This document shows, one piece after another, positions 27,043 through 33,025 of a DNA stretch of 36,611 nt. Every line of letters starts with the position of its first letter. Position 1 is the stretch's first letter. The notes under the pieces are model-generated. The model did no database searches, was not told where the DNA came from, and saw only the letters and a list, made by a program, of their open reading frames with translations. The stretch spans positions 1 through 36,611 of the forward strand of contig PXSF01000126.1 in assembly GCA_003022845.1 (NCBI GenBank), written 5' to 3'. A program made the translations under genes and the position numbers. Origin of the DNA: Halobacteriales archaeon SW_10_66_29 (GTDB taxonomy: Archaea > Halobacteriota > Halobacteria > Halobacteriales > Haloarculaceae).

Positions 27043-27120
27043 TCATGGGTATTTTGGGTCGCTGGGCGTTCCTGGCCTGATCACACCGAGCGCTGTTCGG
27101 AGACGGCTGATAGTGACTTG

Positions 27121-28430
27121 AGGGGAATCCTGCTTAACTCCCTCGCGCGTGATGTATGAGAGGGAGTGCAGAGGTCGACAATAATCCGCGCCTCAGAGCG
27201 TGGGATAGTGACTGACCCAGGATGCGAAGGAAATCAAGCATAGGTCACGCGCCCGCCTGCCGCGCTGGCAGGCGGGCGAGGAACCTGTCTAGATGGATTT
27301 CCGCATCACGCACCGCACTCCAGAGGCAAATCATGGCGTACATCGGTATCGACGTTCACAAGACCGCATCGCAAATCGCCGTCTTACCCGAGGAGCCGAC
27401 GGGTACCGACGACGTTGAACCGCTCGAAGAGATTCGCGTCGAGAACGCGAATCTCGACGAATTTGCTCACCGGTACGAAGGAAGTGAAGCTGTGCTGGAA
27501 GCGACTAGCAACTACTACACGATCTACGAGACGTTGGACAAGTATCTTGATGTGAAAGTTGCAAATCCACTGGAGATGAAGTGGATTGCCGAAGCTGCTC
27601 AGAAAACTGACGAAATCGACGCGAAGAAGCTTGCAGAGCTTGATCAACACGGCGTGCGCTACGATGATGACCTCTTCACCAAGGAGGGGCGCGAGTTCTT
27701 GGCAGAACTCGCGCTCGAGGAGCCGGGTACCCTCCTGTTGGAACAGTGGCTTGAGACGATAGATGACCTGACTGAACGAATCGAAACACTTGACGAAGAG
27801 ATTGAAGAGATCGCAGCTGACTGTGAGCACCCACAGCTGTTGCAGACGATTCCAGGCGTTGGAGCGTACTCAGCGGTAGTGATCTATGCGGAAATCGGCG
27901 AAATAGAGCGGTTTGAGGATGCTGATAAGTTAGTGAGTTACGCTGGGTTGGATCCAACTGTCCGCGAGTCGGGGGACTCGCGGACGGAAGGCTCGATCAG
28001 CAAAGAAGGCAACAGTCAGTTACGAGACGTGCTAGTTCGGGCAGCGAAGGTAGCCGTTCACACGTGCAACGATCCGTATTTGAGTACGTTCTACTGGCGG
28101 TTACGTGGAGAGAAGAACAAACCAGCACTGGTTGCACGTGTGGCAACGGCACGGAAACTGCTGATTTCGATCTATCACATGCTTGACCGGGAGGAAGAAT
28201 ACGATCCACCAGGAGTGAGTGACTGAGCGACGCCCGAGCGTCGCTCATGAGCGGTGCTCGCCCATCGTGAGTGACAACTCTCGCCAGGTAAGATATCTCC
28301 CGCTGGTGGACCGAAACAGGTAGCTTCGTCTCACTGTCTGTCGATTTCGACTAAAAAAGAACCAAGAAGCGCAATTCACCCTAACTACTATGTCGCTCAA
28401 CGTGGTTAGTCTCACCAGCAGGATTCCCCT
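27121..28430 (+). mobile_element. IS110-family insertion element (about 1.31 kb between inverted repeats)
   Basis: AGGGGAATCCTGCT (27121-27134) perfectly inverted at 28417-28430, enclosing an IS110-type transposase; exact ends not determinable. Confidence 0.65.
27333..28226 (+). CDS. IS110-family (DEDD RuvC / transposase IS116/IS110/IS902) transposase, probably internally deleted
   Basis: MAYIGIDVHKTASQIAVLPEE, EATSNYYTIYETL, KTDEIDAKKLAEL, LLQTIPGVGAYSAVVIYAEIGEIERFEDADKLVSYAGLDPTVRESG; only 297 aa. Confidence 0.9.
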   Translation: MAYIGIDVHKTASQIAVLPEEPTGTDDVEPLEEIRVENANLDEFAHRYEGSEAVLEATSNYYTIYETLDKYLDVKVANPLEMKWIAEAAQKTDEIDAKKLAELDQHGVRYDDDLFTKEGREFLAELALEEPGTLLLEQWLETIDDLTERIETLDEEIEEIAADCEHPQLLQTIPGVGAYSAVVIYAEIGEIERFEDADKLVSYAGLDPTVRESGDSRTEGSISKEGNSQLRDVLVRAAKVAVHTCNDPYLSTFYWRLRGEKNKPALVARVATARKLLISIYHMLDREEEYDPPGVSD

Positions 28431-28494
28431 AGATGATTGTTGTGAGTCGTTACCGCTGTCGACCCATTACGTCGTCTCGCTCGGCGAGCACCTC

Positions 28495-28657
28495 GCCCCT
28501 TTCAGTCCCACCCGACGTGGCTGTCCAGGCCGGGCGGGACTGAAAGGGGCCGCCCGTTCGATCCATCCCGGACGACGCAAGCACTGCACCGAGCGAACGA
28601 AGTGAGCGAGGGAAGCGCGCAGCAAGTCCCGGATGGTCGAACGGGCGGGGGCTTTCA
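28495..28657. repeat. Structured palindromic repeat element (two large stem-loops)
   Basis: 28495-28514 pairs with 28531-28550 (19/20); CGCCCGTTCGA 28551-28561 pairs with 28637-28647; outer TGAAAG 28541 / CTTTCA 28657. Confidence 0.7.
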
Positions 28658-32942: not shown

Positions 32943-32981
32943 TATCGACCCTGGCAGTTCCGAGTTGTGTCGAGATGACTG
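32943..32981. repeat. Dispersed intergenic repeat copy D
   Basis: TATCGACCCTGGCAGTTCCGAGTTGTGTCGAGATGACTG matches 10578-10616 at 37/39 positions. Confidence 0.65.
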
Positions 32982-33025
32982 ATAGTGATTGTTGCGATTA
33001 TTTTCGGAACCACGTCACATGAACG

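What the first reader, a model, noticed from the sequence alone, without database searches (positions are those of the whole stretch)
27109..27213. Candidate bridge-RNA guide: 10-bp left-flank sequence repeated inside the IS110 leader
GATAGTGACT lies just outside the left inverted repeat (27109-27118) and again at 27204-27213 in the about 200-bp noncoding leader, which also has a 12-bp perfect hairpin (27250-27278). IS110 elements encode bridge RNAs in a noncoding end whose loops match target and donor sequences, and IS621 uses a CT core. The repeat ends in CT and the right junction also has CT after GGATTCCC. This fits a target-guide loop but is not proof.
Basis: partly seen in the sequence, partly recalled or inferred. 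Interest (0 to 1): 0.66.

Follow-up and report, generated by a model that had tools for sequence, protein, structure and literature searches.

The report
Self-targeting guide RNA of haloarchaeal transposon

Summary
The repeat is real and the central idea holds: GATAGTGACT at 27204-27213 is the left arm of the target-binding loop of an IS110/IS1111-type bridge (seek) RNA. Empty sites put the element at 27114-28433 (1320 bp), inside GATAG|TGATTRTTGYGA, the terminal repeat of an abundant MITE-like repeat. So only GATAG of the "flank" copy is target. The core is TG (not CT), and AC(T) is the element's own left end, matched by a handshake guide. The missed right-target guide is ACAATAATC, 27178-27186.

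In 91 haloarchaeal relatives (42 clusters), guides at the same leader columns match each element's own flanks: left 4-mer 33/42 own, 3/1670 swapped. The right end carries no such signal. Donor and handshake guides also track the element's own ends or flanks. The leader has a covarying structure (82 compensatory cells, 23 in shuffles, 0/500).

The architecture is a mosaic: inverted repeats, 7/3-bp extensions and guide order are IS1111-like; the RNA lies in the left end, as in IS621. The conserved ~200-nt right end is unexplained. This copy's transposase lacks ~44 residues, so it is probably not autonomous. Expression and activity are untested. New variant of a known kind.

The parts
27114..28433 (+). 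whole insertion sequence, 1320 bp (first base = first base of the TG core; a second TG lies at 28434-28435)
   Evidence: empty sites L073 and L085; 7/3-bp extension rule (PMC11187229)
27109..27113 (+). left half of the target, GATAG
   Evidence: empty site; repeat target
28434..28445 (+). core TG plus right half of the target, TGATTGTTGTGA
   Evidence: empty site
27121..27134 (+). left subterminal inverted repeat AGGGGAATCCTGCT (7-bp extension 27114-27120 outside it)
28417..28430 (+). right subterminal inverted repeat AGCAGGATTCCCCT (3-bp extension 28431-28433 outside it)
27137..27314 (+). predicted bridge/seek RNA region; ends approximate
   Evidence: covarying structure on 31 relatives; fold z-score -5.1
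27138..27166 (+). 5' stem-loop, CTCCCT/AGGGAG
   Evidence: register differs between subgroups
27147..27153 (+). GCGTGAT in the 5' loop, pairs with ATCACGC 27305-27311 in the 3' tail (long-range helix)
   Evidence: 96.7% of cells paired, three pairs with double changes
27173..27217 (+). target-binding loop: closing stem 27173-27176/27214-27217, apical hairpin 27188-27191/27198-27201
   Evidence: 99.2% and 98.4% of cells paired, six pairs with double changes
27178..27186 (+). right-target guide ACAATAATC (5' arm), pairs with the top strand GATTRTTGT; columns 27180-27185 carry the covariation
27204..27213 (+). the finding: left-target guide GATAG (27204-27208), core TG (27209-27210), handshake guide AC (27211-27212) and T
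27235..27238 (+). right-donor guide CAAG, complement of element bases 4-7 (CTTG)
   Evidence: own 27/42 against 102/1288 swapped; weaker than the other guides
27242..27286 (+). inner stem AGGT/ACCT (27242-27245/27283-27286) and 12-bp hairpin 27250-27278 of the donor-binding loop
27289..27297 (+). left-donor guide CTAGA = own right end (27289-27293), core TG (27294-27295), handshake guide 27296-27297 (mismatched in this copy)
27333..28226 (+). transposase/recombinase, 297 aa; DEDD (D7, E56, D93, D96) and GLDPTVRESG kept; about 44 aa missing after residue ~102 (near 27638)
28224..28247 (+). hairpin at the transposase stop codon, TGAGCGACGC/GCGTCGCTCA
   Evidence: also in relatives
28378..28395 (+). 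promoter-like stretch that would read out of the right end, into the left-end RNA in the circular form (inference)
   Evidence: conserved A+T-rich block at this place in relatives; not tested

Best explanation
27114-28433 is a haloarchaeal IS110/IS1111-type insertion sequence whose left noncoding end encodes a bridge (seek) RNA. The target-binding loop (27173-27217) recognises GATAG-TG-ATTRTTGYGA: its 5' arm (27178-27186) pairs with the top strand right of the core, its 3' arm (GATAG+TG, 27204-27210) with the bottom strand left of the core. The donor-binding loop reads the element's own ends: its 5' arm (27235-27238) pairs with the left end, its 3' arm (27289-27295) with the right end plus core. 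The two bases after each 3' arm are handshake guides that fit the partner DNA after strand exchange. The recombinase would use the RNA to insert the circular element into the terminal repeats of an abundant MITE-like repeat. Shown by sequence comparison: boundaries, empty sites, target repeat, guide-flank and guide-end covariation, RNA covariation. Inferred: transcription, binding by the transposase, strand-exchange steps. This copy's transposase is internally shortened and probably needs help in trans.
For: Two reciprocal empty sites. Nine best of about 6500 column pairs lie on two guide-flank diagonals. Left 4-mer own 33/42 against 3/1670 swapped, 26 different 4-mers. Right-end last 4 bases copied in 38/42 (58/896 swapped), seven right-end types. 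Handshake positions track the element's own bases 3-4 and target bases +2,+3. 82 double-change cells against 23 in shuffles, 0/500. Target occurs 81 times exactly in the genome, control 0.
Against: No expression, binding or activity data. The right-donor guide signal is modest and the window's donor-loop handshake bases mismatch. Left guides of the other copies of this subtype (G106, G109) cannot be read because their contigs break. The transposase is shortened. The clusters are related, so the swapped-pair counts are not independent trials.
Confidence: 0.93

Rival explanations
1. The repeat is a chance 10-mer with no function.
For: Two other exact 10-bp repeats occur in the same 1.9 kb.
Against: The same columns match own flanks in 33/42 clusters against 3/1670 swapped pairs, inside a covarying loop.
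Confidence: 0.01
2. The guiding RNA of this element lies in the right end, as in most IS1111 elements, and the left-end motif is a remnant or a protein-binding repeat.
For: Published IS1111 elements mostly carry the RNA downstream (PMC11187229, PMC11208160). The right end is conserved in length and in sequence blocks.
Against: No right-end column tracks the flanks (best z 4.3, no diagonal) and RNAalifold finds no shared pairs. Remnants would not keep tracking 26 different targets.
Confidence: 0.03
3. The 10-bp repeat is a target-site duplication or att-like direct repeat made at insertion.
For: It abuts the left inverted repeat.
Against: The right flank has no copy; the empty site holds GATAGTGATTGTTG once and insertion adds at most TG or TGA.
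Confidence: 0.01
4. It is a plain IS110-group (IS621-type) bridge RNA in the left end with the usual guide order.
For: Left-end position, 5' stem-loop then target loop then donor loop, as described for IS621 (PMC11208160).
Against: In both loops the 5' arm pairs with the right half and the 3' arm with the left half, the reverse of IS621. The inverted repeats are 14 bp with 7/3 extensions and the core is TG.
Confidence: 0.02

Closest known systems
IS1111-group seekRNA elements (ISEc11, ISPa11, ISKpn4; Siddiquee et al. 2024, PMC11187229)
   Same: Subterminal inverted repeats of 11-18 bp, 7-bp left and 3-bp right extensions, right-target guide before left-target guide, repeated target
   Different: There the RNA is downstream of the transposase gene; here it is upstream, and the downstream region of similar length shows no guide. 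Host is a haloarchaeon.
IS621 bridge RNA (IS110 group; PMC11208160, PMC11208158)
   Same: RNA in the left end; 5' stem-loop, target loop, donor loop; dinucleotide core; handshake guides beside the 3' arm; repeated palindromic target
   Different: Guide order and handshake geometry mirrored; core TG instead of CT; long inverted repeats; long right end; loop-to-tail helix not described in the papers read
ISHvo10 and ISAcp5 (named in PMC11187229)
   Same: Diverged IS1111-type elements with long noncoding regions on both sides; ISHvo10's name suggests a Haloferax element
   Different: Their RNA is not characterised in that paper; sequences were not compared here
IS4321/IS5075 (IS1111 group)
   Same: Insert into the terminal inverted repeat of another mobile element (title of the reference cited in PMC11208160); here it is a MITE-like repeat
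   Different: Bacterial, other target; only distant transposase similarity (28% over 42% of the protein)

Membership tests
IS110 family in the wide sense (DEDD recombinase) | DEDD N-terminal domain and Transposase_20 domain | tested here: met
   PF02371 E 1e-26; PF01548 27.6 bits, just under its cut-off of 29; NF033542 191.8 bits against 140; D7, E56, D93, D96 aligned
IS1111 group | subterminal inverted repeats with 7-bp and 3-bp extensions | tested here: met
   14 bp, 7/3, fixed by empty sites
IS1111 group | top-strand-pairing guide precedes bottom-strand-pairing guide | tested here: met
   27180-27185 before 27204-27208
IS1111 group | guiding RNA in the noncoding region downstream of the transposase (usual, with known exceptions) | tested here: not met
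   guide signal only in the left end
IS1111 group | GL-P----S(T)G motif in the C-terminal domain | tested here: met
   GLDPTVRESG
IS1111 group | transposase falls in the IS1111 branch of the tree | not tested
   no full set of reference sequences at hand
IS110 group sensu stricto (IS621-like) | RNA in the left end | tested here: met
IS110 group sensu stricto (IS621-like) | no long inverted repeats; left guide before right guide | tested here: not met
Bridge RNA (functional class) | two loops whose arms match target and donor and covary with them | tested here: met
   right-donor guide is the weakest
Bridge RNA (functional class) | handshake guides that match the partner DNA | tested here: met
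   over relatives; the donor-loop pair is mismatched in the window copy
Bridge RNA (functional class) | RNA is expressed, bound by the recombinase and needed for recombination | not testable with these tools
   needs small-RNA sequencing, co-purification and a recombination assay

The most novel reading that the evidence does not exclude
A haloarchaeal branch of IS110-family elements uses a third bridge-RNA layout (left-end location, mirrored guide order, mirrored handshake guides, loop-to-tail helix) that works in a high-salt cytoplasm, and its conserved ~200-nt right end carries a further, undescribed component (for instance a complete outward promoter plus a second RNA or a regulatory site).
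Probability: 0.35. Interest if true: 0.68.

Novelty: new variant of a known kind. Interest (0 to 1): 0.55.

Why it matters
Published work ties the position of the RNA (left or right end) to the split between IS110 and IS1111. A large haloarchaeal group with IS1111 ends and guide order but an IS621-like left-end RNA breaks that rule and shows that guide order and RNA position are separable. The handshake covariation in mirrored geometry is independent support, from a distant branch, for the strand-exchange model derived from IS621. The rules read here (TG core, 5-nt left guide, 6-9-nt right guide) make reprogramming directly testable in Haloferax, where a salt-tolerant archaeal bridge system would be a new tool.

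Tried and rejected
Rfam at gathering and permissive thresholds: no related family. Guide search in the right end on both strands: no diagonal. RNAalifold on right ends: no shared pairs. A first hand-written structure string was off by one column in most helices and gave null results; corrected. One exact-match count of the left guide returned 0 because the slice included insertion columns; corrected. Reading the left flank as a 10-bp target duplication was rejected because the right flank lacks it. A TGA core was considered first, then reduced to TG because the third base at the right flank varies with the target while the element's third base stays A. A CT core was rejected. A tree with reference transposases was not built for lack of full reference sequences.

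Full report
Observation. GATAGTGACT stands at 27109-27118 and 27204-27213, a 14-bp perfect inverted repeat at 27121-27134/28417-28430, and a 12-bp hairpin at 27250-27278. As a bare 10-mer repeat this is unremarkable: two other exact 10-bp repeats occur in the same 1.9 kb, and 8-mers of the flank appear in 2.6% of shuffled leaders, 10-mers in 0.14%.

Boundaries and target. A genome of the same genus (G106) carries ends 99% identical to this element; the left end lies at another locus, the 3' end of a creatininase-like gene. The window locus is empty in G106...GGCTGATAGTGATTGTTGTGAGTC... (L073). The creatininase locus is empty in the window's own genome...GTCTGATAGTGATTATTGTGACTG... (L085). The window reads ...GGCTGATAG|TGACTTG[AGGGGAATCCTGCT]...[AGCAGGATTCCCCT]AGA|TGATTGTTGTGAGTC. 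So the element is 27114-28433 with 7- and 3-bp extensions outside the inverted repeat, exactly the rule given for IS1111 elements (PMC11187229).

The target is an abundant repeat. GATAGTGATTRTTGYGA occurs 81 times in the 2.28-Mb draft of the window's genome, 95 times in G106 and 55 times in G109, the three genomes that carry this subtype (92-99% identical ends), and 0-13 times in the other fifteen genomes of the genus; the reversed-pattern control is 0. Many copies are terminal repeats of MITE-like elements (ATAGTGATTRTTGTGA...TCACAAYAATCACTAT). Insertion into a repeat is common in the family: REP sequences for IS621 and ISPa11, Tn21 terminal repeats for IS4321/IS5075 (as stated or cited in PMC11208160, PMC11208158 and PMC11187229).

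Relatives. Searches of named genomes and of 394 genomes of the class gave 91 elements with distinct flanks, forming 42 clusters at under 93% leader identity. Most share a left end of about 213 nt, a right end of about 204 nt, inverted repeats of 11-18 bp, and ends TGACTYG.../...ATAGG.

Test of the guide. For every leader column and every flank position the own match was compared with matches to the flanks of the other clusters. The nine best pairs all lie on two diagonals. Flank bases -4 to -1 match columns 27205-27208 in 93-95% of clusters against 27-32% for swapped flanks (z 8.4-9.5), with -5 at 27204 weaker (57%). Right-flank bases +2 to +7 are complementary to 27185-27180 (60-76% against 24-34%, z 3.6-6.7). 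The exact left 4-mer agrees in 33 of 42 clusters and in 3 of 1670 swapped pairs, over 26 different 4-mers. In the window the right guide is ACAATAATC (27178-27186): eight Watson-Crick pairs and one G-U with this target, a full match to the GATTATTGT variant. Right-end columns give no diagonal.

Donor guides. Leader 27289-27293 copies the element's own last five bases, exactly for seven right-end types (CTAGA, ATAGG, ATACG, AGCGA, AGAGA, AGAGG, AGGGA), followed by TG; own last-4 match 38/42 against 58/896 swapped. Around 27235-27238 lies the complement of element bases 4-7 (27/42 own against 102/1288).

Core and handshake. The right flank begins with T in 39/40 and TG in nearly all clusters while the third base varies with the target, so the core is read as TG. 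Directly after the left-target guide and core, leader bases 27211-27212 match the element's own bases 3-4 (A in all; C or T co-varying, 38/40). Directly after the left-donor guide and core, 27296-27297 match target bases +2 (31/40, swapped 0.37) and +3 (22/40, swapped 0.29). These are the relations described for IS621 handshake guides, where bases beside the 3' arm pair with the partner DNA after top-strand exchange (PMC11208158). So GATAGTGACT reads the finished left junction: target GATAG, core TG, element AC, and one T more. In this copy the donor-loop handshake bases are mismatched.

Structure. On an alignment of 31 leaders, six helices pair in 88% of cells, with 82 double-change cells against 23.1 in shuffles (0/500) and 26-44% paired when slid (unsupervised fold). 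Helices: 5' stem-loop; target-loop closing stem and apical hairpin (99.2% and 98.4% paired); donor-loop stem and hairpin; and a 7-bp helix between the loop of the 5' hairpin and the 3' tail (96.7%, for example GCGTGAA/TTCACGC against GCATGGA/TCCATGC). The last is a pseudoknot if the 5' stem coexists. In the window it partly overlaps a possible closing stem of the donor loop, so alternative conformations are possible. The window sequence folds 5.1 sd below shuffles.

Transposase. The gene is 27333-28226 (297 aa), an IS110-family transposase with distant relatives of solved structure, ISCro4 and IS621. Compared with full-length relatives it lacks about 44 residues after LAE (residues 100-102), just past the last catalytic aspartate, where the coiled coil begins by the published domain order, and has 6 extra residues near the N terminus. 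The copy is probably not autonomous (inference). A draft-assembly artefact cannot be excluded.

Comparison. It works like a bridge RNA. By inverted repeats, extensions and guide order it is IS1111-like; by RNA position and loop order it is IS621-like. PMC11187229 names ISHvo10 and ISAcp5 as diverged elements with two long noncoding regions and ISMtsp17 as one with an upstream region; the searches made here found no paper that characterises the RNA of such elements, within a library that lacks most subscription journals and preprints. I file it as a mosaic variant and leave group membership open, since the usual downstream RNA position is not met and no reference tree was built.

Open points. 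The right end is conserved in blocks but shows neither guide signal nor a shared fold. It holds a hairpin at the tnp stop and a promoter-like stretch near 28378-28395 that would drive the left-end RNA in the circular form (inference). No expression or activity data exist here.

Noticed in passing
window 32981-32997 and 80 further exact sites in G000: GATAGTGATTRTTGYGA is the terminal inverted repeat of an abundant MITE-like repeat (81 exact copies in the 2.28-Mb draft, 95 in G106, 55 in G109, few or none elsewhere in the genus). No transposase for it was sought.
   Followed up: partly
window ~27638 (transposase residues 102/103): In-frame loss of about 44 residues compared with full-length relatives, plus 6 extra residues near the N terminus.
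   Followed up: partly
28248-28416 and equivalents in relatives: Right noncoding end of near-constant length with conserved sequence blocks but no guide signal and no shared RNA fold. Function unexplained.
   Followed up: partly
28495-28657: Two large hairpin-forming inverted repeats (26 nt at 88%, 21 nt at 86%) directly right of the element; the motif CGGGACTGAAAGGGGC recurs seven times in the genome with up to one mismatch, two of them here.
   Followed up: partly
L025, L170, L183: Elements with the same left guide (TAGAA) but different right guides and right flanks, looking like natural reprogramming of one half of the target guide.
   Followed up: no
L033 and L032 (G106 contigs C12 and C84): Both contigs end inside the element after 86-89 bp of it, which suggests the element is multicopy in G106.
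   Followed up: no
27222-27332: The mechanical ORF call starts at 27222 (334 aa) and would wrongly translate the donor loop of the RNA; relatives support the start at 27333.
   Followed up: yes
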